Source: Prostheceraeus crozeri (lineage: Eukaryota; Platyhelminthes; Polycladida; Euryleptidae). From it: a stretch of DNA of 64,000 nt. Made by a program: the position numbers and the translations under genes. The number at the start of each line of letters is the position of its first letter. Position 1 is the stretch's first letter. This document shows positions 10,956 to 28,161 of the stretch, piece by piece. The notes beneath the pieces were generated by a model. That model saw nothing but the letters and a program-made list of their open reading frames with translations, made no database searches and had not been told where the DNA came from. The stretch is taken from assembly GCA_907163375.1 (NCBI GenBank), contig CAJQUW010011508.1, positions 1-64,000 on the forward strand, read 5' to 3'.

Positions 10956-11725
10956 ATGGTAAGTCAGAAAACTTCCCTCCACCTCCTTTCTTGAGTGTTT
11001 ACCTAATCGCATCTTTCCGCTTTCAGGCTTCTACATCACTTACCAGACTAGATGCTGATGTCCAGACGGTGCAAGGTTCGCTACAATCAGGACATCTACA
11101 GCTGAGACCGGTTGAGGAAACAATACAGGTACATAATCCTACACCCCTACAGCGTAAATTTAGACGAGGCATACGCTATTTCGATCATGCTATAGCGCTG
11201 GAAATGGGAATGATCCCTTCCACAGACGTGAGTGTGAAGAGGAATCAGTATGGAGACTATGTCATCATTCCTGTAGCTCCGTACATACGTCGCCAGCTTG
11301 ACATTATTGAAGAATTTGTGACACTAAATATGGATATCCCTACTCCCCTTGACGAAGTGTGGAGAGCCAGAGATGACAAGGATACACCATATAAAAAGAT
11401 ATGGGAAGGTGAACGACTTTCTTTACCACTATCGCATTGGTGTTCTTACTATCGAAAGAATAGAGAACAAATAGCACCCATCAAGTGTGAAGAGCTCGCA
11501 GAAGGCGCTTTGAATATTCGTTTCACAATAAGCGGACTATATTATGGTTATCATAAGGATAATAAATTGGCTTCTATAGCAATGCTTACTCAATCCATCC
11601 TATATATACCGAAGCAGCCAGATGTTAATAACATTATTGATCAAATCCTCAACGAGAGCGGTGGGAAGCACAGGTCAGAGAGGAATGTTGCCGGAAAACG
11701 CAAATCAAAGAAGGAGAATCGCTAA
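10956..11725 (+). CDS. Polinton early-type gene of unknown function; ATG in its own coding exon
   Basis: The ATG at 10956-10958 is followed at once by a consensus donor GTAAGT. A 68-bp intron (10959-11026) ends in TTTCCGCTTTCAG with a branch-like CCTAATC, and the second exon begins GCTTCTACA in frame. The product is about 234 residues, soluble, without a recognised domain, with a very basic tail (GKRKSKKENR) that could be a nuclear signal. A strong TATA/TCATTC promoter lies upstream and the left terminal repeat is adjacent. The end overlaps the RING-like ORF in another frame. I do not recognise the family. Intact as read. Confidence 0.7.
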
Positions 11726-11885
11726 TCCTTTCCTATCTCTACCTTATGACAATTCGCTTATGTGCTTTGAGTGTCGTAGACGTGGTCTTATCAGATACAT
11801 TTTACTTCTTCGCTGTCATCATGTTATTTGTGTATTTTGTCGTGAACAGCATCGTTGCACTTCTTCATATTGTAATATGTTATAG
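11685..11885 (+). CDS. Small RING-like zinc-finger ORF
   Basis: This 66-codon frame overlaps the end of the preceding gene by 41 bp. Residues show CxxC (CFEC), then CHHVICVFC, then CTSSYC, a C-x2-C / C-x-H-x3-C-x2-C / C-x3-C spacing close to a RING finger, though the last pair is C-x3-C. The proposed start is the ATG at 11685 in MLPENANQRRR. It may be a fragment of a longer protein that continued into the conserved segment at 11959, because the gap between them contains a pyrimidine-rich TTTCTTTTTAG (about 11918-11928) that looks like a splice acceptor. RING proteins usually act as ubiquitin E3 ligases; that role here is inference. Confidence 0.5.
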   Translation: MLPENANQRRRIANPFLSLPYDNSLMCFECRRRGLIRYILLLRCHHVICVFCREQHRCTSSYCNML

Positions 11886-11958
11886 GATTTTTCATCCGAT
11901 GAGTAAAACTATGTAATTTTCTTTTTAGTCATCCACCATCATTTTTATGGATTGATAG

Positions 11959-12480
11959 GGTGATCCTGTACAGGAGCTCAAAGCTATTGCCATGGACAAT
12001 TGCTCTTATCAGATTGTTAGTGTTTATCATCATCATGCCAAGTGTGATCCCAAAGCTGATGGATGGGCGAGAAAACATGTTCATGGACTTAATCAACAAT
12101 ATTAACAAGACTTTGGTCTTCCTACTGAAAGTGCTCTTCTTATTGACTTTAAAAGATGGCTAGCAGCCTTCAATGTTGTACGTATCTTTTTTAATGATCC
12201 CTCCAAGGAGAGAAAACTTTTTCCTAATCTAGTCATTAAAGATATTCTACTTCCACCTTGGGATAGTAGAGTTAATCAACACTATCATGAAGTTACGAAA
12301 CGTTTAAAGGAACTGAGTGTTCCCATTTCAAATGTTCGTCGTAGTAGTCGCTACATTCATAATCAATGTTCTTTTCCTCCTTACCTCAGCACTCCGAAAG
12401 TAAGGTTTGGTTTTCATTGCTCTTTATACGATAGTTACCAACTGTATCTATTTTATTTGTTTCAAACCCAAAATTTGTAA
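11959..12480 (+). pseudogene. Conserved Polinton-type ORF, interrupted by an in-frame TAA
   Basis: One frame is coding-like for 174 codons, broken once by TAA at 12103-12105. Striking blocks are VYHHHAKCDPKADGWARKH near the start, then RYIHNQCSFPPYL and GFHCSLYDSYQLYLFY at the end. The Cys, His and Trp spacing and the closing block match a protein I associate with Polinton-like elements, but I cannot name its function. There is no ATG at its beginning. The frame opens just after TAG (11956-11958), so it was probably an exon joined to upstream sequence. The same frame continues past TAA 12478 into the next gene. Confidence 0.55.
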
Positions 12481-12483
12481 TAC

Positions 12484-12978
12484 ATGCTTGAGGAAGTCAT
12501 TCAATTAAAGCTTTATGTAAAGACTTGCTGTTTTTCATGCAATTGGAAGGATAGATGCAGGATGACAATGTCTATCTCAAATGATTGTGGAACATTGCGT
12601 TTTCATAGAGAAAGTTTAAAAGGGACTATTCAAGATTATGTGATAACATTTCATAAAGATGAGATTAACATCAAATCAGTTATTGGTGATACTAGAACTC
12701 TATTTTTAAAATTAATGGATACGTTTTCTGATAAAATTGTAATGGCGAGATTAGTTGCGAAAATTCATTTCAGTCATTTTGGGAAAGAAGAGGTAGAAGA
12801 TCGTTTCTTCCACTTTGCTTCCTATTCAATGGAAGTTGTAGATAATCCTGAAGAATTTTTTGAAAGACATATGGGAAAAATTGCTCAACGTCTTGATGCA
12901 TTTAACCATCATGGTAGCAGTCTAGTGATTGAAGCAATTTCACATATTCACATTCAACTTTCTATAAAAGAAACTTAA
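12484..12978 (+). CDS. Conserved Polinton ORF with C-terminal FNxxGSSLxIxxIxxIxI block
   Basis: An intact 164-codon frame starts at ATG 12484, directly after and in phase with the preceding stop. The C-terminal sequence ERHMGKIAQRLDAF, then GSSLVIEAISHIHIQ, resembles a block in Polinton polymerase N-terminal regions and in stand-alone Polinton proteins (DxFxxxGSGWxLxxI). In this element the polymerase carries a related segment (KSNIDKFNERDSGLIFDGV). It therefore looks like a free-standing relative of the polymerase N-terminal extension. Biochemical function unknown. Cys residues at 15-24 (CCFSC...C) could bind a metal. Confidence 0.6.
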   Translation: MLEEVIQLKLYVKTCCFSCNWKDRCRMTMSISNDCGTLRFHRESLKGTIQDYVITFHKDEINIKSVIGDTRTLFLKLMDTFSDKIVMARLVAKIHFSHFGKEEVEDRFFHFASYSMEVVDNPEEFFERHMGKIAQRLDAFNHHGSSLVIEAISHIHIQLSIKET

Positions 12979-13091
12979 AGATTCAATGGTACTTGATCGT
13001 AGCACATTTGGTTTTCGAGTTATGTCTACTTACTCTCGAAGTATATTCCTTCTGTACATGCGTCTATTATTTAGAAAAGGCCAGCAAGTTC

Positions 13092-13304
13092 ATGTCTTCA
13101 AAAAGACTTGCTTTAGAAGTTGTTAGTAAGAGTGAAAATATGTGTGATATATGTAAGCGAAAGGATGGAAGTGAAAAGCGCATCTTTAAGAGATGTAGGC
13201 ATACTTTCTGCCAGCGCTGTTTCATACGCTGCTGTATTCAACTCTGTCAAAGTAGCCACTCTGATATAGCTCATTTTGAGTGTCACTTCTGCCATAAAAG
13301 TTAG
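13092..13304 (+). CDS. RING finger protein (putative E3 ubiquitin ligase)
   Basis: This small protein of 70 residues is almost entirely a RING finger: CDIC, then CRHTFCQRC, then a Cys-rich loop, then CHFC. That gives C-x2-C / C-x-H-x3-C-x2-C / C-x2-C, the C3HC4 pattern. The chosen start is ATG 13092 (MSSKRLALEVV), the first Met close to the finger; the frame is open further upstream. Viral and Polinton RING proteins are usually thought to redirect host ubiquitination, which is inference here. Second RING-like ORF of the element after 11685-11885. Confidence 0.75.
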   Translation: MSSKRLALEVVSKSENMCDICKRKDGSEKRIFKRCRHTFCQRCFIRCCIQLCQSSHSDIAHFECHFCHKS

Positions 13305-13309
13305 TACCA

Positions 13310-13705
13310 ATGCAAATATGGAAAACTCAAGTTGTGACAATGGTTAAGAGAAAAATGGCGAAACGCAAAAGTCGAAAGTCTTCAAAATTTACTGCAGCCA
13401 CTCGAGCTCTTCAACGAATGAAAGGAATTCATCGATATAATGCTATACGACATGCTAATGATAAATTTATTCGAGAAATTGTTTATCATGTGAGAAGTTT
13501 GAGGACAAAGAAATTATCACCACAACAACGAAAGTTACTTAAGCGACATACTACGAAATTGCGATTCATCTCCAATCCTAATGTTACCCCTCAAAGAAAG
13601 AGGAAAACTCTAACACAAAAGGGTGGTTTCCTTTTACCACTACTTCCGATGTTAGCTCCTGCAGTGGGCAACGTATTGGGTAGTATCTTTGGCTCTAAGC
13701 GTTAA
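13310..13705 (+). CDS. Small basic Polinton protein with hydrophobic C-terminal tail
   Basis: 131 codons from ATG 13310; ATG 13340 is an alternative. The body is very basic (KRKMAKRKSRKSSKF, many Arg and Lys). The end has QKGGFLLPLLPMLAPAVGN followed by a Gly-rich tail, a hydrophobic and amphipathic helix. The RK-LTQKGGFLP-type tail recurs in small late ORFs of Polintons, located just before the packaging ATPase as here. By analogy with adenovirus core and membrane-active proteins it could bind DNA or membranes; this is inference. It ends 31 bp before the likely ATPase start. Intact. Confidence 0.65.
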   Translation: MQIWKTQVVTMVKRKMAKRKSRKSSKFTAATRALQRMKGIHRYNAIRHANDKFIREIVYHVRSLRTKKLSPQQRKLLKRHTTKLRFISNPNVTPQRKRKTLTQKGGFLLPLLPMLAPAVGNVLGSIFGSKR

Positions 13706-13736
13706 TTATCCAAATGTTGAATCTCAAAGTATTAAA

Positions 13737-14354
13737 ATGGATTTCAGACTTCAATGTGATAAAGTTCTGACTGTATCAGGTCCATCCCATGCAGGTAAAA
13801 CTGTTTTCACTCTGAATTTGCTAGATATAAGAAGGGAATTGTTTAGGGAACCTATCAATCGAGTTATTTGGTGTTATGGTATTTATCAGCCGTTACTCTT
13901 TCAGGAATTGCAACGCCGTAACTTTCTTCAAAATGAAGGAATTATTCGAGCTGATAAGATAGAGTCCAACGATGTTGTTGTATTGGATGATCTATTGAAG
14001 GAAAGCAAGAATTCTAAAGACGTTACAGATATGTTCACCCGCGTAGCACATCACAAAAGATGCTTTATAATCTATATCACGCAAAAAGTTGTTTCCTGAT
14101 GGGAAAGAAGCCCGCACACGAAACTTGAATACACACTATTACGCTATTTTCAAGAATCCGCGAGATAAAAGTCAATTTGAAATTTTAGCGCGACTAGTTT
14201 CGCCAAGAGGTTAAAAAGCTTTAATTGAAATTTTTCAAGCAGCAACTGAAAACCACACGGTTACTTATTTATTGATTTTACACAAGAGTGTCCGGAAGAA
14301 TTTAGATTTCGAAGTGATATTTTGAAAAAGCCTATGATTATCTACAAACTATGA
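13737..14354 (+). pseudogene. Packaging ATPase (FtsK/HerA type), frameshifted
   Basis: The N-terminal part has Walker A GPSHAGKT (about residue 15), Walker B VVVLDDLL (about residue 82), and the polar FIIYITQ strand that follows in genome-packaging ATPases of Polintons and adenovirus-like viruses. The coding sense is lost at about 14088 (one-base shift). It resumes in another frame with NPRDKSQF, hits TAA at 14213, and shifts again near 14278 before ending at 14352-14354, overlapping the next start (ATGA). It would pump the element DNA into capsids. Two shifts and a stop show that it is inactive. Start chosen at ATG 13737; no upstream Met fits. Confidence 0.85.
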
Positions 14355-14815
14355 GTTATTATTCTCGCATGATTGTCATTCCTCAGGATGAATATGTGCA
14401 ATTGACTGCTTTACAGCAAGTAAAGCAACCTCTAGCAAATCAAATGTATAAGAAAGAACTGCATTATCAGGAAAATGCATATATTAAAGATCCATATCGC
14501 GCAGTTTTATTACAATCAGAAACTGTTGAAGAATTGAAAAGTTTGAAGAATAAGATGCGTGACTCTGTTTCGACTGCTACACCTTTAGCATCTCGTGCAC
14601 ATGCAATAGCTCTTTTCAACAGGATTGAACCATATCTCACTGTGAATGATAGAGGTGAAATCATTTCAGATGAAAATGAAATTATTAACGCTTCACGTTT
14701 TGAAGACTTGATTCAGTATGAAAGACGCAGAAAGCGCCGTCAAGGCTATGTCCCACCTGGTTGGTCTTACTTTCTTAAACTATTGAAAAAGCACAACGTT
14801 CCAAATTTGCTTTGA
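14351..14815 (+). CDS. Conserved Polinton ORF, N-terminal part
   Basis: 154 codons from ATG 14351, overlapping the ATPase stop. Blocks IVIPQDEYVQL at the start, DPYRAVLLQ in the middle, and SRFEDLIQY, then GWSYFLKLLKKHNVP near the end are those of a protein found in nearly all Polintons beside the ATPase and integrase. Its role is unknown; a virion role is often assumed. The frame stops at 14813-14815, but an open basic tail begins in the next frame at 14812. The natural protein therefore probably continued, and a one-base shift cut it here. Confidence 0.7.
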   Translation: MSYYSRMIVIPQDEYVQLTALQQVKQPLANQMYKKELHYQENAYIKDPYRAVLLQSETVEELKSLKNKMRDSVSTATPLASRAHAIALFNRIEPYLTVNDRGEIISDENEIINASRFEDLIQYERRRKRRQGYVPPGWSYFLKLLKKHNVPNLL

Positions 14816-15069
14816 ATAATGAAACATTGAAAGAACTTGATTCTACTTCAGAATCTAGTACTACTTCAAATGTTAATTCTGTTCCTAAAATGAGGAGTGT
14901 TACAATGCCAAGAAATTGGTTTAAGAGTTCACCTTCTACATCTCCTTCCACACTCACTAAGAAAACAAGAGCAAGAGAACGACGTAGATCTACACCCTGT
15001 AGGCAAAGAAGAGAAAGAGATAGACGTAGAAGATCTCCACCAAAACAATACATGTTCTCAGACTATTAA
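14812..15069 (+). pseudogene. Ser/Arg-rich tail of the preceding conserved Polinton ORF, in a shifted frame
   Basis: Starts without an ATG, sharing TTGA with the stop of the preceding frame. The 85 codons are Ser/Thr-rich, then strongly basic (TKKTRARERRRSTP, RQRRERDRRRRSPPK), ending at 15069. Relatives of the preceding ORF typically end in a basic, Pro/Ser-rich tail, so this reads as its displaced C-terminus. Programmed frameshifting is possible but there is no obvious slippery heptamer; a simple indel is likelier. Confidence 0.55.
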
Positions 15070-15070
15070 T

Positions 15071-15256
15071 ATGAAGCAGATGTGTTGCATGCCATGTAAT
15101 GAACCGCCGGAGGTGCATGTACTTGTAACATGTACTTGCTGTGCCAGCTCTTATAGTGAGACTCCTAAGCAATGTGAACATGAACGTAAATCTGCTAAAT
15201 CTTGTGGCTGTTGTATGTGTAGAAAGGCAAGAAAGCAAAAACATGAGAAGAAGTAA
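15071..15256 (+). CDS. Cys-rich microprotein overlapping the integrase start
   Basis: A 61-codon frame from ATG 15071 with clustered cysteines: MCCMPC, then CTCCASS, then CEHE, then CGCCMC, and a basic end (RKARKQKHEKK). It starts two bases after the previous stop and its stop (15254-15256) overlaps the likely integrase start (15243), typical of compact viral gene packing. The cysteine spacing suggests metal binding, metallothionein-like or a small zinc ribbon. No family is recognised. It could be a chance frame, but the Cys content is far above chance. Confidence 0.5.
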   Translation: MKQMCCMPCNEPPEVHVLVTCTCCASSYSETPKQCEHERKSAKSCGCCMCRKARKQKHEKK

Positions 15257-16328
15257 GAGTCAGTCGTCATCGCATGAACTTTTAAAGTCAATATACTATG
15301 ATGTAAAACATCCAGCAGGATTTGCATCTATAAAGAAATTGTTAAAAGCAAGTGGTCTTCAACAATCACAAGTTAAACAATGGTTAAAGGGTCAGGCTAC
15401 CTATACACTCCACAAACAAGTGAAAAAGAAGTACCGTACCCGTCATTATATTACTCATGACATTGATGAACAGTGGCAGGCAGATTTGTGTGACGTTGCC
15501 TCTATTTCAAAACATAACTCGGGAAATAACTTTATTTTGACAGTATTTGATATCTTCTCGCGATATGCGTGGGCTCAACCATTAAAAACTAAAGAAGGTA
15601 AAGAAGTAGCAAAGGCATTTCAGTCAATTTTCCAAGAGGGTCGCATTCCAAAGAGAATTCAGAGTGATCAAGGAAAAGAGTTCGAAGATTAGCATGTCGG
15701 AAGATTGTTTGAGAGATATGACATTGAGCTGTTTAGTGTAAAGAGTGCCTTTAAGGCTGCAATAGTTGAAAGTTTTAACCGCTCATTGAAAAATCGCTTG
15801 TGGCGACATTTCACTGCCAACTTGAAACAAAATTGTACAAAGATTCTACAAGATACACTACATGCCTACAATCACTCTGTACATCGCTCTATTGGACTCA
15901 GACCAGCGGATGTGAATGCTGACAATGTGGATGAAGTGCATGAAACATTCCAACGTAAGCGTAATAATGGAAAAGGTGATGTAAAAATAGGCGACAAAGT
16001 TCGCATATCAAAAGTGAAGAGTGTTTTTGCCAAAGGTTATCTCCTGAATTGGACAGAAGAAATTTTTACAATTTCAAACATCAATAAAAAAGACTCTCCC
16101 ACAACTTACAAGTTGAAAGATTACGATAATGAAGAAATAGATGGCAGCTTTTACCGTGATGAGATTGAGGTAGTCACTGAAAGTGAAACATATTTAGTAG
16201 AGAAAATCATTCGAAGTAAGAAACGTCAAGGCGAATAATGGTGTCTTGTTAAATGGGTCGGTTATCCATCAAGTATGAACTCTTGGATGCATCGTGCAGA
16301 CATCTTTCATCTACGCGATCGTCAGTGA
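15243..16328 (+). pseudogene. Polinton integrase (retroviral DDE type with chromodomain), two in-frame stops
   Basis: A single frame runs through the whole gene, broken by TAG 15690-15692 and TAA 16236-16238. The rve core shows QADLCDV (first Asp), DQGKEFED (second Asp region) and VESFNRSLK (the Glu), the DD35E-type triad. NHSVHRSIGLRPADV follows, as in Ty3-type and Polinton integrases. After the second stop the frame continues with LVKWVGYPSSMNSWM, the chromodomain aromatic cage region, whose N-terminal strand YLVEKIIR precedes the stop. Start taken at ATG 15243 (MRRSKS), upstream of the helix-rich region. It would insert the element; neither active site nor chromodomain would be made intact. 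Confidence 0.92.
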
Positions 16329-16368
16329 TTTATGCAAAGATATAACTTGTACTGTCAAGGTCTAAGTT

Positions 16369-16831
16369 ATGAGTCCGACTGCATCGCTTTATTCACGCCC
16401 CTCCTATCTAAGTGGCGTGGGTGCAATTTACAGCGGCACCCGCCGTCAACGTGGAGGTAGTATATTTGGCTTGCTGAAATCTGTTGTATCTCCTCTCTTA
16501 TCTACTGTCGGAAAAACTTTAAACGATCTGTTTTAAGTAATGCTGTTGGCTTTGCTGGTGATGTTGTCAATGATATTGCCAGTGGAAAAGATATAAAGAG
16601 TAATATACTAAATCGTGGGAAGGAACGCGGTTTAAGAACATTACAACAAACTTTAATGCTACACAACGAAAGAAAGCACCTAAACGAATGAATGTTAGAA
16701 GAAAAAGAAAACAGCGCGGAGCTGGTAAGAGGCGAACTTTACGCAAATCTAAGAAAAGGCATTCACGCAAACGCCGTGCGCGCTCTAATCCTTCATCGCG
16801 TGCTAAACGACGACGCTGTCATAACTTCTAA
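16369..16831 (+). pseudogene. Basic Polinton virion-type protein (YLSGxGxIYxG family), frameshifted twice
   Basis: The first frame (ATG 16369) has YLSGVGAIYSG and QRGGSIFGLLKS, a Gly-rich start followed by hydrophobic VVSPLLSTVGK. It stops at about 16535. Coding continues in a second frame after about 16512 (GFAGDVVNDIASGKD) and in a third frame after about 16655, ending in a long Arg/Lys tail at 16829-16831, three bases before the capsid gene. This order (Gly-rich start, amphipathic stretch, basic tail) belongs to a protein that precedes the major capsid gene in many Polintons. It is likened to adenoviral minor core or membrane-lytic proteins; the exact role is unproven. Confidence 0.7.
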
Positions 16832-16833
16832 TC

Positions 16834-18108
16834 ATGGAGTGTAAAACTTCAAATTTTTGTTTGTTTGATCAGCCAGCGATACAGACAGATATTCTTAGTT
16901 CAAGTATTGTAGATTATCATCCTCGTACAGCTGAGAATACTGGTCCTATTGAATTTGTTATTCCTGGCGCTAGCGATGATTACATTGATTTGAGTTATGC
17001 GATGGTTGAAGTGCGGTTCAGAATTCAGCAAGCAGATGGTGCTAACATCGATGATGCACATAAAGTTGGTCTGAACAATTTACCGCTGGCTACATTATTT
17101 CGTGATGTTTCTCTAACTATTGGAGAGCAACAGGTAGAAGGTGGACAAAGCGATTATCCCTATAAAGCATATTTAAATGCTCCATCACAGTTTAATCCGT
17201 CAGCACAAAAGAGTCATATGGAAGCAATGGGATGGTATAGAGATGAAGCAACACAATTTGATAGTGAGACAAACACTGGTTTTGTAAAGTGATCTGCTTT
17301 GATTAAAGATAGTAAAGTATGTCAGCTATATGGTCCACTAAATCTTGACTTCTTCAGACAATCAAAATTTTTACTCTGTAATACCAGTATGCGACTCAAA
17401 CTTACATTGAATAAGCCTGAATTTTTGTAGAATGCATATGCTAAAGTTGTCAATTTTAAAATCCATGTGGAAGATATTACAGTATACATTCGTCGAGTGG
17501 TAGCTAATCCAAGTGTAATTAGAGGATATGCTGAGGGTCTTAACCGTAGTAATGCTATTTATCCCATTCAACATACAAAGCTTCTCATATTTACTATTCC
17601 TAAAGATCAAAAGAGTTTTGTGAAAGATGGTTTATTTCCATCAGAAGCACCAAAACTCCTCATGGTAGCAATGGTTGAAAATGATGCATTCAATGACAAC
17701 ATCAAGAAGAATCCTTTCAACTTCAAACACAACAGTTTGAGCGAAATTGCTTTGCGTGTAAATGGTGTTAGTCATCCTGGTCCACCCTATAAACCAGATT
17801 TTACTTATCAATTTCTGCGTAGTTATGTTGATTATATGAATGTCTTTGGCTTTTACAACACAGACGATACCAACGGACTTACAATGAAAGAGATTAAAAA
17901 TGGATATATTATTTATGAATTTGATTTGACTGTCGACAGCGATATTTGTGCACCTTATCGTCAAGCTAACGTTCCTCATAATATTCGCTTGGATCTGGAG
18001 TTCAAAACAACGCTAACGGAGACGATCAATGTATTGATTTATGCAGTTTTTGATTCAAGTATTGAAATAACTAAGTATCGTGACGTGATTCCTTACTATA
18101 ATCGTTAA
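16834..18108 (+). pseudogene. Major capsid protein (double jelly-roll), two in-frame stops
   Basis: One frame of about 424 codons from ATG 16834, broken by TGA 17290-17292 and TAG 17428-17430. Recognisable Polinton capsid blocks include DLSYAMVEVRFRI, NNLPLATLFRDVSLTIG, DYPYKAYL (N-terminal jelly roll) and YAVFDSSIEITKYRDV near the end. Length is within the usual 400-500 residues for this family. It would form the hexon-like trimers of an icosahedral particle. The stop TAA overlaps the ATG of the protease (TAATG), indicating tight late-gene packing. The stops prevent a full product. Confidence 0.88.
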
Positions 18109-18512
18109 TGAGTTGGTTGAATGCTGACGATATTAAAGCTAAAGTACAGCGCAATGCAGATGAAGCTACGTTGAAGGCTTTTGATAATGTCTATTCGCTA
18201 GATACCTTACCGACTACTGTAAAACAGCATCCCATCTTTATCTTATTAAACACTCAGTCAAAGAATCTAGAAGGTGAACAATGGAAAGCTATCTTTATTG
18301 GAAAAGACAGACTTGGTGAACTATTTGACTCTCTTGCTCAACCTCCAAATATACCAACACAGCAGTGGTTGAGAAAACATACTCGTCAATATCAACGAAA
18401 TGAGCGCATACTGCAACATCCACTTTCATCATCTTGTGGAGCTTTCGTATTGTACTTCATTTTAAAACGTTTGCATGTACGTCGATTTAAATCTGTTGTT
18501 CAAAAGTTTTAA
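18108..18512 (+). CDS. Adenain-like cysteine protease with the catalytic His replaced by Gln
   Basis: 134 codons, full-length and open, starting at ATG 18108, overlapping the capsid stop. Family landmarks: FILLNTQ, then GEQWKAIFI where relatives have G-x-H-W; ELFDSLAQPP (acid position D74); Gln103 and SSSCGAFVLYF with nucleophile Cys110. The general-base His position is Gln58 (CAA), so the triad is broken by one transversion while the rest is preserved. Adenain-like proteases mature virion proteins; this copy is predicted inactive although its frame is intact. Convergent with the minus-strand TBP-like gene 88 bp away. Confidence 0.85.
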   Translation: MSWLNADDIKAKVQRNADEATLKAFDNVYSLDTLPTTVKQHPIFILLNTQSKNLEGEQWKAIFIGKDRLGELFDSLAQPPNIPTQQWLRKHTRQYQRNERILQHPLSSSCGAFVLYFILKRLHVRRFKSVVQKF

Positions 18513-18559
18513 TGTAGCCCATCCTCTAATGAAAAAATGATTTGTATGTTCTATAATGA

Positions 18560-18603
18560 TTTGAAATAAAACATCATCATATTGGAATAAAAATTGTTTT
18601 TAT
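18560..18603. terminator. Back-to-back polyadenylation signals between convergent genes
   Basis: AATAAA occurs twice on the + strand (about 18564 and 18586), serving the capsid-protease unit. TTTATT at about 18597 is AATAAA on the minus strand and overlaps the stop codon of the TBP-like gene. Confidence 0.6.
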
Positions 18604-19484
18604 TTCACAATCCGCTGGATATGTACATATTCGATTAAACGGTCTAGGATTGTATCTGCTTGCACTTCTGATTTCAGTTCAGTAATGATAACTTTACTGT
18701 TGTGAAAGATTGCAATATGTATAGGATTCCAACAATTAATGAGAGCTGCAGGAAAAAGTTCTGGTCCATAACACAAATTGTAGCTGCTGCCATGAATCTT
18801 CGAAAACGATGCATTTTCACTCAATTGAGTAGAGATCACCATAGTGTTCACAGTCAGATTCGACATCACACACTTCTCCCTCTTCCATATCCGACGTAGT
18901 AGTCTCTGCAGCTCTAAGCGCATTAACCGCGCCGATGAATGAGAAAGGGCGCCGAGAATTTGTACCGTCCCATTTGGAAAGAGTTGACGGTTCCGTAAAT
19001 TGCTCATCTTCACCACTAACATTTGTGGTCGACCCGGATAATGCTTCCTGTTTGGAATTTGTTGATGTAATGTTGCGAGATCGATTTTGGTATAGAGTCT
19101 GATGCGGCGGAGAATGTTGACGATGGTGTAGCGATGACGTTTCATGATAAAAAAATGAGTAAACAGAGCGATGTATCTTCCTTTTATACTTTCCCAACTA
19201 CCTTGATGAAATGTGAAGTTAGTATGGAGTTGGGAATGATAGATTTGTATTCGTTGCTTTTTTAGCCGCAACCATATGCGATTTCCTATGCGTGAATGTC
19301 TTTTCATATAGAAGTATTTCAAGTCCTTCATGATATGATTTAGACATTGAAAATGTCGATATGATAAAGCAAATTCTCTTCTCATATTTCCAGTATAGTC
19401 GTTGAAGTAAACGTTTTGATCATAATCAATCTCAACATGTTGTAGGGAATCTAATTTCCAACACTCCATGATGGAGCGTAACAT
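18600..19484 (-). CDS. TATA-binding-protein homologue with N-terminal PC4-like domain
   Basis: 294 codons from a Met at 19484; the real start may lie upstream. Residues 8-110 form a PC4-like region: HVEIDYDQNVYFNDY followed by FALSYRHFQCLNHIMKD (compare the ISLxxEQWxxLK block), then IGNRIWLRL and FHQGSWESIK. Residues about 121-292 are a two-repeat TBP fold. Repeat 1 has NILRRIRLYTKIDL, then LFPNGTVQILGALS. Repeat 2 has YGPELFPAALI (compare SYEPELFPGLIY) and IAIFHNSKVIITELKS. Phe159 and Phe260 sit at the DNA-intercalating positions before each GK-type strand. TBP bends TATA DNA and nucleates pre-initiation complexes; PC4 is a ssDNA-binding coactivator. This gene and the protease (its active site lost) are the only diagnostic core genes with full-length open frames. 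Confidence 0.8.
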   Translation of the reverse strand: MLRSIMECWKLDSLQHVEIDYDQNVYFNDYTGNMRREFALSYRHFQCLNHIMKDLKYFYMKRHSRIGNRIWLRLKKQRIQIYHSQLHTNFTFHQGSWESIKGRYIALFTHFFIMKRHRYTIVNILRRIRLYTKIDLATLHQQIPNRKHYPGRPQMLVVKMSNLRNRQLFPNGTVQILGALSHSSARLMRLELQRLLRRIWKREKCVMSNLTVNTMVISTQLSENASFSKIHGSSYNLCYGPELFPAALINCWNPIHIAIFHNSKVIITELKSEVQADTILDRLIEYVHIQRIVK

Positions 19485-19916
19485 TGTGTTGAAGGTGGTG
19501 TCTGATTAAGATTTGCATAGTAAAGCGATGAACTCTCGACGAATAAATGACATAATGGAGCGATGTATGTATCCATCTTTTATATTTTTTCCAATTGTAT
19601 TTGCGAAATGAAAAATAGATTGAGGAATCAGAATGACAGATTTGAATTTCATTTCTGTAATGTTGAAGCCAAACTTGATCACCCAAGGAGAGGAATTTTA
19701 GCGTTTCAAATAGTCCAAATCCCTCATGATGTCATTAAGATTGAAAAATTGTCGCCATGTTAATGTAATTCTTTTCGATGTATTTCCATAAGAATTCTTG
19801 AAATGAACGTTTCCATTGCGATCAACTTTGATGTATTGTTGAGAATCCAAAATCCAAGTCTTCATGATGTTATGCAAATTGGTAATATATAGATCACCAG
19901 AATATGAAAATGTCAT
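19432..19916 (-). pseudogene. Second PC4-like copy upstream of the TBP-like gene, frameshifted
   Basis: Two frames together cover one more copy of the N-terminal domain of the TBP-like protein. The first (19916-19698) has WILDSQQYIKVDRNGNVHF and RITLTWRQFFNLNDIMRDLD. After a one-base shift near 19700, the second (19686-19432) has LGDQVWLQ and NWKKYKRWIH. These align block by block with the downstream domain (KLDSLQHVEIDYDQNVYF, HFQCLNHIMKDL, IGNRIWLRL, SWESIK). It is either a tandem gene duplicate that lost its TBP part or the first half of a two-domain protein. The Met at 19916 overlaps, on the opposite strand, the ATG of the next + gene. Confidence 0.6.
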
Positions 19917-21290
19917 TTTACCATATTTTGCTTAGCAATGCAGCAACAAATAGATTTGCTAGTAATCGAGCCGCTATCTTTTCTACTCCCATTGATAATA
20001 TACAACAGCTGAATGGAGAGTGGGAAGTAGGGGTCACACAACTTTTTCACAGTAACTGTGTCTATACTTTTGATCATTAATATGAGACGCACAGCTGCTT
20101 ACCAATGTGAAAAGGGCTGCCGAGTATACAATCCACAATGGCCGAAGAAAGATCTTCTATCACGCCAGAAATTCGTTTATGATTTCCTGAATAAAGCGTG
20201 TAAACATATTGTCCAATTAACTCCGCACAATGATCATCATAATTATGTACATCATGTAGTTGAGAAAGATTGGATTGTTGGTTTAAGTCCAAGTTTAAGA
20301 AATGATTTAGGTTACCTCGCTAGCGCCTTAACAAGCTATGATAATTATAACGTTAATTACAACCCAAGTGGTCAGAAACAGTTAATGTATCGAGAGGAAG
20401 CTTATTATGTAGATCTTATTCCAAGAAATGAGAAGACGTTGGTGAAGAGGATTGTGATTAAGCCAAGAAAGACAAACATGACTCCTGAAACATTATTGAA
20501 GAAATTTAATTATCTCCTTCGAGTTGATGGTAAATAAGTGGCAACATTGACTTATATCAAATCATCTAATCATATTGTAATAAGTAAATTAAATGATGAT
20601 GATCTAGTATTAGTTTGTTCAAAAGATTTTCATCAGTTCTTACGACATCGTTCTGCGGCTGTTCATGGAAAATTTAATATGCAACATTTGCCATGTGAAA
20701 GGTCAAATCAATTTGATACAGAATGGACCGTATCTTTATACAGAAAGTGTCTAGAGCCTTTCGGTGGTATCTTACATGAAACAAGACTGTTGATGCCTCG
20801 CATTATCACTTCAGTGAAATTGGCTATAAATTATTTGAATGAAGTGATTAATGAGCAACATGTTTCATTTTCTGAAAAAGAAGGTGCTTTGTCTCTCACT
20901 GTAAGGGGAAAAGGTATTGAACTAATAATGGATAAAACTCTAATGGACATTTTGGGTTTTGATCAAAATATCTTTAAAAGTGGTACTGTAACCAAAGCTA
21001 GCGCAGACATGTCGCTATCGCGTCGTATTAACTATTTTCAGATATATTCCAATATTGGTGAAGATGTACGTGTGGGAGATGTTGAAGCTCCACTTCTATC
21101 AATGATACCCTACCAACCAAAATGCAATAGTACTCTATCTGAGCATACTTTTCAGAAAGTGCATTATACAAACTTGAAATCAAACTATATGGCACAAATT
21201 GATATTGCAATTTATGACGATGGTGCGTTGATTCCTTCTCACAAAGATGCTGTGACATGTATAACACTCCATTTTCGAATGAAGAATTAA
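19910..21290 (+). pseudogene. Structural-type Polinton protein A (SNAS/GEWEVG family), broken
   Basis: Starts at ATG 19910 with LLSNAATNRF and LNGEWEVGVTQL, the N-terminal signature of a protein family found in most Polintons. The frame shifts between about 20058 and 20080. It then runs open to 21290 except for TAA 20535-20537. The C-terminal blocks FQIYSNIGEDVRVGD, ALLSMIPY-like PLLSMIPY and CITLHFRMKN (relatives: VGDxxxPLLRxVP, LHFRR) complete the family. Such proteins are candidate minor capsid or penton-type components, but function is not proven. It is paralogous to the next gene, suggesting a duplication. Confidence 0.72.
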
Positions 21291-21329
21291 TGCAAAAGTG
21301 TGGAAATATATGTTTCCAATGTGAATGAC

Positions 21330-22850
21330 ATGGAAAGTGAAAATAGAGATTCGTTTCTAATTCACTTACCCAGTAATGCTTCTATGAATATATTTCCTAA
21401 TAATAAACCATAAGACTTTCGTGTAGAATTAAATCGCTCACTACATCTAGAAGGTGAATGGGAAGTAGATGTTTCCAGCAGTTGCTATGATAGCAATATT
21501 CAGAATGTGAATGATTTGGAAGAAATGATATTGACTCCTCGCACCTATGATGGAATAACGATGAATGATGCATTCCAGTTCCCATACAAATTAACGTCAG
21601 ATGGAAAGTGGAACTATGAATGTATTCAGATAAAATCAGATTATTATGATCCATTTGGAGATGAGAAAATTATTAAGGCATTCAATAGTGGTAATACTTC
21701 CATCATGAAGAATAAGGATCAGAAAGTTTATGAGTTTACTATCTATCATTGGAGTGGGAGACAGTTCCTTCGCTTTCATTCTTTTACTAAAGGACTTACA
21801 CTGAGGTTGGATAATGAATTCTATCCACATCTCGGTTTTGGCCATGGACTACATCTAACGTCAATTGCTACTGCAATTGTTAAAAAAGTTTATTCAAATC
21901 GAATCAACAAATTTCATTATAAATTTAAAATATTTGATGAAGATGTTGTAGAATGTGAAGATCGCATCATTTTGAAAAAGCGTGGTGTTCAACCTTTGTC
22001 ACCTATTGAGTTAGTAAAACGATTGAATGAGACTGTGGGTAAGAAGTATGGAGAGAAGATTATGGCGGACAAAGATACATTGGTTATTCAGAAATATAAT
22101 GACAAACTTACAGTTTATTTCTCTCCAAGCTTCCGTCATTTTGTAAGACATCATACACCTATTATTGGAAGCGGTTTGGTTTATGCTTCTCATGAATATC
22201 ACACTAAAGCTGATTCAGTTAATGATGAATGGTGGGTGGACATCTGTGGTGATCGCATCAAGAAAATTTACCAGTCTTATCAAGAATCCAAAGTTTCTGT
22301 CAATATAATGCCGCGTCTATATCATACAGTTGAAAGCTTCATTCATGTAATAAATACTTATATACAACAGAAGTTGAAGCATGTGATGAAAAGTAAATAT
22401 GATGTAAAGACACACCACATTTCGTTTTCAATTGAAAATCAACGCGTTGTTCTGAAACTGGGTGATGACATTCAATGTCAATTGAGCAAAAATTTGAAAA
22501 AACTCTTTGGTTCTTCAATGCTACAAACTGTGTTTACTGCTGCGCATACGATTGGTATAGAAACACCAATGACACTTGATAAACATGAACAACATCTTTA
22601 CATTCAAAGTGATTTGATTCTACCTATTTCTGTTGGCGAGGAAAAAGAACACATTTTACGTGATTTCATTCATGATAAGGATGCTTTATATGGAATAGTC
22701 GAGAAGATGCTTCAACCTATTTTCTACCAACCTGTAATCAAACAAACTATACCATCTATTTCTATCAAAATTACAAATGGTCTACATGAGTGCATCCATG
22801 TCAAAGATACTAAATCCCTCGTAACTTTGGTGTTTCGGAAAACAAAGTGA
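21330..22850 (+). pseudogene. Structural-type Polinton protein B, paralogue of A, one early in-frame stop
   Basis: From ATG 21330 the frame reads SFLIHLPSNASMNIFPNN, then TAA at 21411-21413, then LHLEGEWEVDV and 450 more codons to TGA 22850. Shared layout with protein A: LPSNAS/GEWEV start, VNIMPRLYHTVESFIHVIN (A: MPRIITSVKLAINYLNE), LYIQSDLILPISVGEE, and a TLVFR end. About 506 codons. The downstream part from about 21507 is fully open. If reinitiation occurred, a protein lacking the N-terminal block could still be made. Role inferred as virion-structural only by family company. Confidence 0.75.
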
Positions 22851-22862
22851 AGTCATTGTGAT

Positions 22863-22882
22863 ATGTTTATTGAAATAAAAAT
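22863..22882. terminator. Overlapping polyadenylation signals on both strands
   Basis: TTTATTGAAATAAAAA holds AATAAA on the + strand (for protein B) and AATAAA on the minus strand (for polymerase B), back to back between convergent genes. Confidence 0.55.
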
Positions 22883-23032
22883 ATGTGTATGAAAAGTCTT
22901 TTCACAGATATAAAGGGAATGGGCTGACTGTAGGCATATATTCACAAGGAAGTGCAATCTAAAGCGATACATAAAACAACAATGAATGTCAACAAAAGCA
23001 TCATCAAAATACTGATTTGAGACTGAATCTAT

Positions 23033-26000
23033 TTACACATCTCCTGAATGTGGTAGTGTGAGTTTAATTCTTTTGGTTAGTGATATGTTTGTATCAGGAT
23101 GACCATGTGGAAGAGATATGCTATGCCCTATCCAACACCTCTTATCTTCCCACGCTGAAAGTGCTCGCTTCCTAGATGTATGAGTTTTACCTCATGCGTC
23201 TTTGATTTTAAGATGGTCATGTTGACAAACGTTGCACACTTATTTTGAAAGGCCTTCTTATAGACCCTATGTTTCATATTTACAACAATCGACTTAGATA
23301 TGCCTTTTGCGCGCTTAATACTGTCACTGGAGTCTTTTGGTTTCATAGAATACATTTTAGGCCGAAGAAGAATCATTTCCTTAATTTCTTTTCCTGCCAT
23401 TTCATCTTTGAAGCATCCTAATTTTGCTTTATTTTTAGTAGAGTATAGTGGGTGATATGTAGGATAATTTGACGTATCAAAATATTTTCTAAAGATTTTC
23501 CTATTTCATTGAAGTTTAACTCTTTCTGAGCAGCGATGCTTAAAAAGAAACTGTCGGTATCACCACCCAGGAAACGCACGTCTTTAATTAGAGGACATGG
23601 TTTTAATATTCTATAGAAGAGTTGATACATTTCAAGCTTGGAATAATCTAATACAGCTTGTCCAATGTAGATGGGCTTGCACAACTCTACTTCTGATTTT
23701 ATCATTTTAACACCAACCAACTCATTATCTATAATATCTCTATCAATAAAGAGAGGTGATGCCGCTAACTTTTGAAATTTATCATTATGATTCACAAGTT
23801 TATAGTTTATGCGTTTTCTAACATCCACCATCGACTTACCAAAAAGACTATTATTCTTATACTTATAAAAATCCTTTTCAAAATTATTTTGGGCTGGTGC
23901 ACGTTTCTGGCTGTTACTATCAATATATGGTTTCAGAAAGGCTTTCTGTCTAAATTTGATAATGCGGTGAACTGTTTTTAAAATCACGCCCATTTCTAAA
24001 TAAAATTTTAAGATGGAAAAGTGGACTAGATAATTTTCTTTATCAAATTGAGTAAGCAAAAGTTTACGGCAATGCTTATACTTGGGCTGTCCACTCCCTT
24101 ATAAATCTTTATGAAATTGCTTCATAAAGTCCGAAAACATATCTTCAGTCACTTCGCCTGATTCGGGTGCAAGTAAAAAATCCACAGTTTTATTTTTAAT
24201 ACTATTTGGATAGATAAGATCTACCTCAAAATAATATCCCCAATCACCATCATCTGGAATAGCTAGTATGTTTGAAGGATTGGAGAAATGCTGAATTTCA
24301 TTATCACCCAACCAGCTAAACTCAGAGTGAGGTAGAGGTTTGGACAGTGAACTACCATATAAATTATTCTGGTCATAGTACTTTAAATGAATCTGATCAT
24401 CATCTACTAATTTTGATTCTATTTGATGCCTATTTACAAATGTGAGACCACAGCGAATTCCTCGTTCAAATAAATTATACATCTCTGGATCTTGCAAAAG
24501 ATGGATGCTCTCTCCAGTCATTTTAAAAGCAGACTGGAATGACATGGCTGGAAGACTGACAAAGTGGATAGGGTCAAATTTATCTTCTTCTAATGTCACT
24601 CGTCGAAACTCCTGAAATACATCAGCCAGCAAAAATACATCTAATTTTAGATAGGGGATCATATAATCGCTAAACTTTGACAGTCAAATTTTGTCCATGC
24701 AACTTGAGCATGATTGTAATCTTCTACCTTGCATTCTATACCAGTCAAATCATTTTTAAATTTGTCTATTGATGGAAGAGAAGTCTCACTAAGTTTAGAA
24801 TTGTTGTCAAAGTATGCATATGGAAACACTCCTTTGCGTGTGATGACTTCATCCGTCAAGTTAGGATATTGTTTCTTCAAATTTTGAGTTAGTGGAAGAG
24901 ACTTAAGATTTTGAACGAGAGATGCTAGTGATGAGGTCATGAATTGATAGGAATCTAAAAATTTTATATCAAAGTAGACTGTCTTATTTTCTTTAGTCTT
25001 ATCAACTGGTACTTTTGCTGACATGGACATAAATTTTTCCCTCGTTTGAGATGTAACATTCATCAACCATCCCTCCATTTTTCCTAACCCCCTTTTTATT
25101 ATCATATGGCTGTCATAGCCTTTGAAGTTATGAAAAATAGCGGGTAGAGTGCGCCGTTTCATTCTTAGACAAAAATTGCATCTTGAACACAGTGCGTTTC
25201 TAAATTTTAACAGTGATGTGATCATGGTCACGCACTTTCTTAATTTTACCCTAATCAAACGTTTTATTACATTTTGAGCAGACTTTACAACTTTCAAATT
25301 TTACCTGATCATCTGCTGTCATATTTAATGATCTGTGATAGAGTTCACTATCATATTTTTGTTGAAATTTACTACCACTTTCCAGGAATTGCAAGAATTA
25401 GTGTATACAATCCTCACCTTGCCAGATGTGCATTTTATTATTTTTATTTTGAAAATGATTATGCTATACCTCATAACAGAATATGGCTGCTGGCTTGTGG
25501 ATGTTATCATCAATATAGCATTCGATGTCAGCATAGATGACACGAAGAGGACTTAATTCACTACCATTCTCTCTATATGAAAAGATTTTATCTTTGGGCA
25601 TGCGTTTCATTTGCAATTTACCTCGCTTACACCATTCATAATGTGTTTGAAACTTATCTTTTGACCAGAAGGATCTCATACAACGGTCACATATGAAATG
25701 CTCCCCCTTTTGGATGTTAAGTGGGAATAATCGATGATTATTTGGAATACCGCAGTGATGCCATTGTTGACTGCTATCCTCATATACCAACAAGAGGTTG
25801 ACAACGCGATCATAAGTTGATGAACGTTTGTTGTAGCGTACACCTTTAAGTCCTTTTTGCCAGACATGAACAACTATTTTAATTTCATTTAATTTTTCAA
25901 ATTTCTCTATATCTTTCAATTTCATATCTTCGCCATTACAGTCATCAAATTTCAATTCATTCTCCCATGGATGATATTTGATTTTACGGAAACGATTGTT

Positions 26001-26819
26001 CTGTACATCATGATGGTGGAGAATGGATAAAACCGCATAATTTAAACAGTGCGATTCACAATCTATAGAAATGACTGCTTTCCTATCTTTTAACGTTTTT
26101 GGAAGATTGAAGGAGCCTCGTCCACTGCAATTTTCAAATAGAGTAATTTTAAAGTTGGCAGATTCTACACCATCAAAAATCAGACCACTATCGCGCTCGT
26201 TAAATTTATCAATATTTGATTTTAGCCCTTGAATGTGAAAATTTAACCATACTTCTTTATCTACTACCTCTGTAGCAGGAGAGGAGGGTATGTGAAACTC
26301 CAACCTCTGCACTATTTCGCAAGTATGATGATCAAATTTAACATTTTTTTTAAGATAGATGAGCGCTTTTATTCTAAAGTTGTCTAAATTTCTAAAGAGC
26401 GCATCTATTAATATTGAATTTTGATGAAACCACTCCGGAAAATCAGCAATAGATTCTGAGGATTCCATATGGTAATTTCTCACTACATTATTGAGCGACA
26501 CTTCAGTGAGACGGATAGAGGAGGTGCTGTTACTATAACTATCATTTGTGTGTGTGTGGTGATGTCTATGTGAAGATAATTCAAAACCTGTTTCAAAAGA
26601 TTGGAAACAAAAGTCACAAGTAAAGGAGAAGTGTTGAATAGAATCATCCTCACCTCGGGAGATTGATGATGTCTTGGGTTGACATACACGTTGTCTGATG
26701 TGTCGGGCGAGATCACGCTTCCTTGCAAAGATGTGACCACAATCAGCACATTCCCGCTCATTAGATTCCCGCGACTGGCCGCTTGAGCTGGTACTAACAT
26801 CACCAGAAAGAGAAATCAT
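23033..26819 (-). pseudogene. polB: Protein-primed family B DNA polymerase, broken into at least five frames
   Basis: All landmarks are present in order on the minus strand. N-terminal C2H2 fingers (CADCGHIFARKRDLARH, CDFCFQSF) come first. Exo I is VIYADIECY (about 25.54 kb). NFKGYDSHM is Exo II (about 25.1 kb), YLKLDVFLLADVF Exo III. YYDQNNLYGSSL is Pol A, KYKNNSLFGKSM Pol B and GGDTDSFFL Pol C (about 23.57 kb). Coding shifts frame or stops near 25.46, 25.3, 24.66, 24.1 and 23.41 kb. A final shift near 23.14 kb leads to LPHGHPD and TAA at 23033-23035. It would replicate the element from terminal-protein-primed ends. The catalytic Asp and Glu positions survive, but no single product could form. 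Confidence 0.93.
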
Positions 26820-26908
26820 TCTATCATCTCTATTAAAGTTTTAGTTTATTGTTTCAGCTGACCTTCACTTATTAGGTCTAAAGTTTCCTCGAGAAGGGAG
26901 CGTTTTGG

Positions 26909-26993
26909 TCATGAATTAGATGCCTGTAATTGAGAAGGATGCTATTAGCCAAACGTTTGAGTGAAGTAAGTGAGGAAATCTTCAACTTACCAT
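26909..26993 (-). other. Leader coding exon and 67-bp intron of the polymerase transcript
   Basis: On the minus strand, ATG (26993-26991) is followed directly by GTAAGT. A 67-bp intron (26990-26924) ends TTCTCAATTACAG, and the next exon starts GCATCTAATTCA. This copies the design of the leftmost gene (ATG|GTAAGT ... CAG|GCTTCTACA). After five codons the frame meets TGA (26911-26909), and beyond it another coding-like stretch (PKRSLLEETLDLISEGQLK) runs toward the polymerase Met at 26819, in a different frame. I infer that the polymerase originally began at this spliced ATG, and that decay separated it. Alternatively it was a small separate leader protein. Confidence 0.5.
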
Positions 26994-27092
26994 TTCAACG
27001 AAAACAAGTTTAAGTATGATACTTTAATGTTAGAAAATTGTATAGTTTGTCAAAATGGAGACTTCACTTATTCTCAATACGTATCAAATATA

Positions 27093-27127
27093 GAATGAAA
27101 ATGAATCTGTTTCCCCCCTTTTATATA
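27093..27127 (-). promoter_or_regulatory. TATA box plus TCATTC initiator of the polymerase gene
   Basis: On the minus strand TATATAAAA starts at 27127. TCATTC lies at 27098-27093 with its A at 27096, 31 bp downstream. The surrounding CATTTTCATTCTATA is nearly identical to the promoter at 29321-29354. Confidence 0.75.
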
Positions 27128-27177
27128 CTCTCATACTCGGCATTCATTGGCTATTCATTTGATTGGCTGCTTCCTTG

Positions 27178-27212
27178 TACTTAAGCACTAAGAAATCAAG
27201 TTTATAGCATTC
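27178..27212 (+). promoter_or_regulatory. Weak TATA-like/CATTC promoter candidate
   Basis: TACTTAAG at 27178 and GCATTC with its A at 27209, spacing 31 bp, just before ATG 27224. CCAAT-type ATTGG boxes occur upstream (about 27146 and 27162). It fits the element's promoter layout with a poorer TATA. Confidence 0.35.
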
Positions 27213-27223
27213 AATTTGAAGTC

Positions 27224-28136: not shown

Positions 28137-28161
28137 ATATCATACGATCGAACAGGCTAGT

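What the first reader, a model, noticed from the sequence alone, without database searches (positions are those of the whole stretch)
18600..19916. Polinton-encoded TBP homologue fused to PC4-like domains
Seen: a minus-strand ORF with two TBP-type repeats, including YGPELFPAALI and the NILRRIRLYTKIDL start, preceded by a domain patterned like the PC4 coactivator, and a second PC4-like copy just upstream. Known: TBP and PC4 act together at RNA polymerase II promoters; TBP genes occur in giant viruses, but I am not aware of TBP as a standard Polinton gene. Inference: the element carries its own promoter-recognition factor. The TBP frame is open over its full length while most core genes around it are broken.
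Basis: partly seen in the sequence, partly recalled or inferred. Interest (0 to 1): 0.88.

Follow-up and report, generated by a model that had tools for sequence, protein, structure and literature searches.

The report
Polinton TBP gene overlapping PC4-like gene
A virus-like element in an animal genome carries its own version of the promoter-recognising protein TBP, and related copies show that it is not fused to the neighbouring PC4-like protein but overprints that protein's tail in another reading frame, so one stretch of DNA encodes parts of two proteins.

Summary
The TBP is real: PF00352 E=2.9e-13; an AlphaFold2 model of a relative is confident (pLDDT 90). The "PC4-TBP fusion" is an artefact of decay: a frame change in this copy joins two genes. 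In relatives the PC4-like protein (two beta4-alpha units plus a disordered tail) and TBP are separate same-strand genes overlapping by about 320-340 nt in different frames: 11 of 11 public PC4-like proteins and three groups in the same genome with 36-56% TBP identity. Synonymous recoding of TBP keeps the PC4 frame open in only 1-13 of 20,000 trials. TATAAAAGG lies 43-46 nt before the TBP start in 19 of 25 copies. An 18-mer of the overlap has 5,303 exact matches in the genome. "PC4" rests on predicted fold; sequence profiles do not support it. The window copy looks relaxed, not preserved. I found no report of TBP in Polintons in the open papers searched. Most likely the element brings its own promoter-recognition factor, made from a nested TATA promoter; binding and expression are inferred, not shown.

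The parts
18600..19145 (-). TBP gene of the element (181 aa, two TBP repeats)
   Evidence: PF00352 E=2.9e-13; 224 bits to the 40-row profile; own ATG at 19145, in register with relatives
18817..19197 (-). C-terminal frame of PC4-like gene 2: end of the last helix plus disordered tail; overlaps TBP over 18817-19145 (329 nt)
   Evidence: matches columns 94-217 of the profile of 11 PC4-like proteins, 212 bits
19146..19484 (-). N-terminal, ordered part of PC4-like gene 2, in this copy joined to the TBP frame by a frame change
   Evidence: 129 bits to the same profile, columns 1-101; relatives P0004-P0006 run on into the other frame
19432..19916 (-). PC4-like gene 1, a shorter paralogue without tail, broken into two frames here (limits approximate)
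   Evidence: 66.8 and 56.4 bits; a single 125-codon frame in L049
19180..19188 (-). TATAAAAGG, candidate TATA box of the TBP gene, 43 nt upstream of its ATG, inside the PC4-like coding sequence
   Evidence: exact at the corresponding place in 19 of 25 copies
18108..18512 (+). Protease-like gene (C48/adenain type), convergent with TBP
   Evidence: PF02902 E=0.011, below its cut-off; a homologue sits beside the pair in the 4 stretches of groups A and C
15141..16238 (+). Integrase, in two pieces
   Evidence: PF00665 E=1.1e-7 for the first piece, 32.5 bits against a cut-off of 32.6; no Pfam match for the second
23418..26819 (-). Family B DNA polymerase, in four pieces, with C2H2-like fingers in the N-terminal piece
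   Evidence: PF03175 E=3.5e-5 and 1e-4 for two pieces, both below the cut-off; fingers
9822..32056 (.). The whole element, bounded by terminal inverted repeats beginning AGTAGTAAGC, with flanks GACTTC / AACTTC
   Evidence: 40 of 40 terminal bases identical, 99.2% over 600 nt; inverted arms

Best explanation
A Polinton/Maverick-type provirus encodes its own TATA-binding protein. It is made from a gene that starts inside a PC4-like gene and overprints the disordered C-terminal tail of that gene in the +1 frame. The PC4-like protein has two tandem beta4-alpha units, which could form an intramolecular pair that binds single-stranded DNA. TBP is probably translated from its own short mRNA, started at a TATAAAAGG box embedded in the PC4-like helix codons about 43 nt upstream of its ATG. 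The viral TBP would then bind that box and other element promoters and recruit host TFIIB and RNA polymerase II, so that late or autonomous transcription no longer depends on host TBP. Shown here: TBP homology, the two-gene overlap, maintenance of both frames, purifying selection between lineages, and the TATA match. Inferred: the separate mRNA, DNA binding, recruitment of host factors, single-stranded DNA binding, and timing. The window's copy is a decayed one in which a frame change joins the two frames.
For: TBP. Two genes, not one: the 10 hits to the 294-aa query are 7 TBP-only and 3 PC4-like-only proteins, none with both. Eleven PC4-like proteins share a tail of constant register and end, and 11 of 11 can encode the TBP profile in frame +1 at 255-281 bits, against at most 72 for shuffled tails. 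In 22 of 25 genomic copies with an open TBP, the PC4 frame runs through the overlap to its usual stop (317-341 nt). Openness under synonymous recoding: 3, 1, 1 and 13 of 20,000 in four representatives of three groups, and 0 of 22-23 stop opportunities used in each. dN/dS between two group A lineages is 0.28 for TBP outside the overlap and 0.22 for the PC4-like ordered part. TATAAAAGG at -43/-46 in 19 of 25 copies, and 5-13 ATGs from the PC4 start to the TBP ATG in 11 copies, which disfavours leaky scanning. Three of the four positions that hold DNA-intercalating phenylalanines in cellular TBP (recalled) are F in 120, 119 and 120 of 120 relatives. Homologues of the window's Polinton genes flank the pair in all six 10-kb stretches looked at, though in group B in another order.
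Against: No expression, binding or RNA-mapping data. Third-position constraint in the overlap is inconclusive. The tail's amino-acid sequence beats a synonymous-recoding null clearly in one of five pairs (0/1500), less so in three (5, 17 and 64 of 1500) and not in one (450/1500), so mostly openness is kept. Close pairs within a group show dN/dS of 0.63-0.80 for four of six values at small counts (TBP 0.70, 0.73, 0.80; PC4-like 0.24, 0.63), as expected of copies drifting after insertion. The first DNA-intercalating Phe position of repeat 1 is replaced by a GRP motif in about 115 of 120 relatives, so DNA contact may differ. The TATA box is exact in only 5 of 9 group B copies; of 22 public TBP rows printed, 12 carry the I-K that fits TATAAA, 2 have T-K (does not fit), 2 have I-N, 1 is unlike, 2 were too short and 3 had a mislocated start. 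Of 17 other ORF starts of the element checked in the window, 1 has TATAAAAG within 160 nt and 1 a looser match. Overlap in the wide 120-protein family is not separable from the null except in P0001-P0003.
Confidence: 0.7

Rival explanations
1. A real PC4-TBP fusion protein, as first read from the window.
For: One open frame of 294 aa in this copy; joined frames also in copies L011 and L015.
Against: None of 10 hits to the joined ORF holds both parts; the PC4-like tail continues in the other frame in 11 of 11 proteins; group B has a TBP-frame stop one codon before the TBP ATG in 9 of 9 copies; in L011, L015 and the window the tail frame is still present beside the joined frame.
Confidence: 0.03
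2. Two genes, but a fraction of ribosomes shifts frame in the PC4-like gene and makes a PC4-TBP fusion in some lineages.
For: The TBP frame is open for 165 nt upstream of the TBP match in 8 of 13 group A copies; an A-rich stretch lies there.
Against: Group B has a TBP-frame stop directly upstream, so the trait is not conserved; RNA folding of the site is ordinary, z=-0.29.
Confidence: 0.04
3. The viral TBP acts not as an initiation factor for element genes but on the host: it competes with host TBP or TFIID, or binds the element's ends during replication.
For: The first repeat has lost one DNA-intercalating Phe position; few element ORFs have TATA boxes near their starts in this copy; the stem separating it from four reference TBPs is very long.
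Against: The second-repeat stirrup (E, F, P) is kept in 119-120 of 120, a region that contacts TFIIB in cellular TBP (recalled); a TATA box sits before TBP itself.
Confidence: 0.2
4. The overlapping tail is a by-product: only TBP matters and the second frame is open by chance or by composition.
For: Tail sequence conservation beyond openness is weak; the tail is predicted disordered.
Against: Chance openness 1-13 of 20,000 in each of three diverged groups; tail length and end conserved in 11 of 11 proteins.
Confidence: 0.03

Closest known systems
Cellular TATA-binding protein (PF00352), archaeal and eukaryotic
   Same: Two TBP repeats across the whole length, E down to 2.4e-23 with the 40-row profile; confident model with the TBP-type strand and helix order in both halves; three of four DNA-intercalating Phe positions kept (the positions recalled).
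   Different: Very long branch from four reference TBPs; repeat 1 has GRP[EQ]M where cellular TBPs have an F; short and intronless; gene overlaps a PC4-like gene. The host's own TBP is a separate canonical gene in exons.
Beta/gamma-herpesvirus TBP-like protein (BcRF1/UL87/ORF24; PMC4893493, passages read)
   Same: Virus of animals with its own TBP-like factor, which acts in a viral pre-initiation complex.
   Different: The herpesvirus proteins are said to have around 10% identity and are known by fold; the Polinton protein is found by the ordinary TBP profile. A TATT-type late promoter set was not tested here.
TBP of mirusviruses (PMC10132985, passages read) and of a haloarchaeal virus, HRTV-9
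   Same: TBP carried by a DNA virus.
   Different: Larger, unrelated viruses; no overlap with a PC4-like gene is mentioned in the passages seen, and the HRTV-9 TBP gene does not overlap its annotated neighbours.
PC4/Sub1 (PF02229)
   Same: Predicted beta4-alpha unit, here twice in tandem (the PC4 fold itself recalled).
   Different: No profile match in 11 of 11, hhalign about 0% to host PC4 exons.
Polintons/Mavericks and adintoviruses
   Same: Terminal inverted repeats, integrase, family B polymerase, protease-like gene.
   Different: The conserved set named in the passage read of PMC4028283 has no TBP; in 12 Polinton- or adintovirus-related papers searched inside, TATA and PC4 do not occur as genes, nor TBP in the 11 where I asked for it.

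Membership tests
TBP superfamily (PF00352) | Profile match above curated cut-off, two repeats | tested here: met
   49.9 bits against 22.9, two stretches
TBP superfamily (PF00352) | Pseudo-symmetric saddle fold | tested here: inconclusive
Canonical cellular TBP | Four intercalating Phe positions (recalled) | tested here: not met
   three kept (F in 120, 119, 120 of 120), the first of repeat 1 replaced; so I file it in the superfamily, not as a canonical TBP
Canonical cellular TBP | Binds and bends TATA DNA, recruits TFIIB | not testable with these tools
   needs purified protein
PC4 (PF02229) | Profile match | tested here: not met
   0 of 11 members at E up to 10
PC4 (PF02229) | Beta4-alpha fold forming a dimer | tested here: inconclusive
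   two beta4-alpha units at pLDDT about 95 in relative P0006; no structure comparison possible; weak shuffle signal for unit 1, 4 of 11, unit 2, 1 of 11
Polinton/Maverick | Protein-primed-type PolB and retroviral-type integrase | tested here: met
   PF03175 in two pieces, PF00665, all three just below their curated cut-offs; the genes are broken
Polinton/Maverick | Terminal inverted repeats and short target duplication | tested here: met
   TIRs 99.2% over 600 nt; flanks agree in 5 of 6 bases
Polinton/Maverick | Double jelly-roll capsid and packaging ATPase | tested here: inconclusive
   no Pfam match above cut-off for the candidate capsid ORFs or the ATPase-like ORF
Overlapping (overprinted) gene pair | Both frames maintained across diverged lineages | tested here: met
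   constraint on the tail's own sequence is weak

The most novel reading that the evidence does not exclude
A widespread lineage of animal Polintons carries a compact transcription module: a TBP gene with its own TATA box nested inside a PC4-like, single-stranded-DNA-binding-type gene. The viral TBP activates its own promoter and others of the element, giving a self-reinforcing switch from host-TBP-driven early transcription to viral-TBP-driven late transcription. Overprinting ties expression of the promoter recogniser to that of the promoter-melting or replication factor.
Probability: 0.3. Interest if true: 0.88.

Novelty: new variant of a known kind. Interest (0 to 1): 0.74.

Why it matters
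Virus-encoded TBP-like factors are known from giant viruses, mirusviruses and herpesviruses (passages in PMC4893493 and PMC10132985). A TBP in elements of about 22 kb would put a viral promoter recogniser into a far smaller virus-like genome and would give a handle on how Polintons time gene expression. The overlap of about 330 nt may also explain why the protein searches returned either the TBP or the PC4-like protein, since gene callers tend to drop one of two long overlapping frames (inference; contigs could not be opened). A deeply diverged TBP lineage under dual-frame constraint, with thousands of matches in one animal genome, is a natural experiment in TBP evolution.

Tried and rejected
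Looked for DNA of relatives in public collections: four scans of viral contigs and two of genome contigs found none; the phage collection gave one haloarchaeal virus TBP; the plasmid collection gave 40 records, of which the 20 listed are archaeal TBPs. DNA relatives came from the window's own genome instead.

Reduced synonymous divergence in the overlap: lower third-position change for close group A pairs, not for distant pairs; inconclusive. Tail-encoding test on 120 TBPs: only P0001-P0003 exceed the null. N-terminal extensions of 24 TBPs (28 rows, 4 of them PC4-like proteins dropped): 19 end in the PC4 register at columns 110-114, 17 of these above all their 20 shuffles; 3 others matched further down because the start motif was mislocated, 2 gave nothing. 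RNA structure at the junction: ordinary. Rfam and tRNA searches of the window: nothing. Sequence link to PC4, and between the two units, by hhalign: none. Programmed frameshifting rejected as a general explanation because of the group B stop. Two scripts ended by time limit with no result and were rerun in faster form.

Full report
1. What is in the window. The minus-strand ORF 18600-19484 matches the Pfam TBP profile at E=2.9e-13 with two stretches and 35 distinct PDB sequences of TBP or TBP fusions at E<1e-3. The TBP gene proper begins at the ATG at 19145 and has 181 codons. It lies in an element of 22.2 kb with terminal inverted repeats (99.2% identical over 600 nt, 40 of 40 terminal bases, flanks GACTTC/AACTTC), with pieces of an rve integrase, a family B polymerase and a C48-type protease. 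These matches lie slightly below their curated cut-offs, and the genes are broken; capsid and ATPase were not confirmed by Pfam. I accept Polinton/Maverick.

2. The fusion is not ancestral. A search with the 294-aa ORF found 10 proteins: 7 are stand-alone TBPs (175-202 aa) and 3 are PC4-like proteins of 216-222 aa whose C-terminal half corresponds to the other frame, window 18817-19197. A second search gave 11 PC4-like proteins including its query, every one with a tail of the same register and end. A search with the TBP alignment gave 208 relatives at E<=0.001, 120 listed, all 120 with PF00352. In the window a frame change in the codons for the last helix joins the N-terminal part of the PC4-like gene to the TBP frame.

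3. Dual coding in public proteins. A dynamic programme asked how well each of the 11 PC4-like proteins could encode the TBP profile (40 rows) in another frame. Frame +1 gave 255-281 bits in 11 of 11, in the same register; shuffled tails (12 each) reached at most 72; frame +2 gave at most 49. Conversely, P0001-P0003 can encode the PC4-like tail (283-324 against a null maximum of 190); the other 117 of 120 TBPs do not exceed the null. N-terminal extensions of 24 TBPs end in the PC4 register in 19, 17 of them above all 20 shuffles.

4. Dual coding in DNA. The window lies in a genome of 2.05 Gb in 14,165 contigs; the TBP family gave 150 scored matches out of 10,983 candidates, among them the host's canonical TBP gene and a TRF-like gene in exons. 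From the places listed I fetched 40 copies spread down the list; with five loci and the window that makes 46 copies, a best-scoring sample, not a random one. In 25 of 46 the TBP frame is open throughout; in 22 of these 25 the PC4 frame also runs through the overlap to its usual stop, and in 3 it stops early (L007, L019, L042). Three groups exist, A (13 copies with the window), B (9) and C (3), with TBP identities of 36-56% between groups; the overlap is 323, 332-341 and 317 nt in the copies that reach the usual stop. In 9 of 9 B copies the TBP frame has a stop one codon before the ATG. In four representatives, synonymous recoding of TBP kept the PC4 frame open as long as observed in 3, 1, 1 and 13 of 20,000 trials, and none of 22-23 stop opportunities was used. 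Selection on the tail's own sequence is weaker: tail identity reaches the observed value in 64, 5, 450, 17 and 0 of 1,500 recodings for five pairs, and at columns where TBP differs only one pair stands out (19 of 1,500). Third-position constraint was inconclusive. The whole genome has 5,303 exact matches to an 18-mer from the group A overlap (control 0), 5,524 to an 18-mer around the TATA box (control 1) and 809 to a group B box-to-start pattern (control 0). These count matches, fragments included, not whole elements.

5. Selection and decay. Between two group A lineages (L030, L038) dN/dS is 0.28 for TBP outside the overlap and 0.22 for the PC4-like ordered part; two further pairs give 0.28-0.31 and 0.25-0.29. 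Between the window and L030 it is 0.73 (11 non-synonymous and 4 synonymous changes), and close pairs within groups give 0.70 and 0.80 for TBP at small counts, as for copies drifting after insertion. The window TBP departs at 2 of 18 invariant columns; of 80 other relatives 77 depart at none and 3 at one; at 39 conserved columns it departs at 5, and 5 of the 80 depart at 5-7.

6. Structure. Relative P0006, a PC4-like protein, is modelled as two beta4-alpha units (residues 5-61 and 63-114, pLDDT about 95) and a tail from about residue 117 mostly under pLDDT 50; that tail is the overprinted part. Sequence does not support PC4: 0 of 11 in Pfam, hhalign about 0% with host PC4 exons and between the two units, weak shuffle signal for unit 1 (4 of 11 above the 99th percentile), little for unit 2 (1 of 11), none for the tail (0 of 7 scored). 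TBP relative P0002 is modelled at pLDDT 90. Fold comparison was never available.

7. How it may work. A TATAAAAGG lies 43 nt (A, B) or 46 nt (C) upstream of the TBP ATG in 12 of 13, 5 of 9 and 2 of 3 copies. Among the PC4-like codons of four representatives Arg is AGG in 6 of 39; four of those six are this very site, one in each representative. That the codons TAT AAA AGG recur in all three groups is therefore suggestive of a kept box, though the amino acids YKR are conserved too. In 11 copies 5 to 13 ATGs, the PC4 start included, precede the TBP ATG, which makes leaky scanning unlikely. I therefore favour a separate TBP mRNA from a nested promoter that viral or host TBP can bind. Three of four intercalating Phe positions (recalled) and the second-repeat stirrup are kept. 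Steps shown are anatomy and selection; binding, recruitment and timing are inferred.

8. Context. In groups A and C (two 10-kb stretches each) the pair lies between the protease/capsid-candidate genes and one or two conserved genes homologous to window 20031-22847; PolB follows within the stretch in three of the four (not in L050). In group B (two stretches) the order differs: PolB lies beside the pair in L052, only a polymerase fragment in L051. A tree of 20 sequences separates 16 Polinton-type TBPs from 4 references (host TBP exon, two haloarchaeal plasmid TBPs, one haloarchaeal virus TBP) with 100/100 support and a very long stem; with so few references it says nothing on origin.

9. Literature. 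Searches: Polinton + TATA-binding protein, 3 papers, two of them looked into at passages and about other viruses (PMC10675990; PMC10132985), the third (PMC7786948) not opened; adintovirus + TBP, 0; Polinton + PC4, 0; two of Maverick/Polinton/TBP, 146 papers, 40 listed, one with all three terms (PMC7786948); adintovirus, 29 papers, 20 listed; TATA-binding protein + giant virus + virus-encoded, 5; Polinton + overlapping genes, 2, not opened; Maverick + TATA-box binding protein, 1, an algal virus paper not opened; two searches gave no such report in their listings. Term searches inside PMC11071308, PMC11071296, PMC10120064, PMC8097293, PMC4028283, PMC8363768, PMC4642659, PMC12220804, PMC10328495, PMC10675110, PMC12721341 and PMC7805220 show no TATA or PC4 gene, and no TBP in the 11 where it was asked (not PMC4028283); the two hits for 'tata' in PMC12220804 are an author's name. 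Only open-licence papers are held, and the first descriptions of Polintons and adintoviruses were not seen, so a report elsewhere is possible.

Noticed in passing
window 30219-64000: A tandem array with an 11.87-kb period and nearly identical units begins inside the right end of the element and runs to the end of the window; units hold reverse-transcriptase ORFs and a copy of the element's terminal repeat.
   Followed up: partly
window 19432-19916; L049 4171-4545: Group A elements have an additional PC4-like gene without tail directly upstream of the overlapping pair; it is one open frame in L049 and broken in the window.
   Followed up: partly
whole genome G000: More than 5,000 exact matches to each of two 18-mers of the TBP/PC4-like locus suggest a very large Polinton load in this animal.
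   Followed up: partly
window 7862-8512 +: Glycosyltransferase ORF with a DXD-type sugar-binding region (PF04488 E=3.3e-13) in the left flank.
   Followed up: no
window 9917-10716: Direct repeats of 127-300 nt, 76-89% alike, in and beside the left terminal repeat.
   Followed up: no
L002 (G000:C3829): A TBP-related gene in exons, distinct from the host's canonical TBP, resembling a TRF-type factor (label recalled).
   Followed up: no
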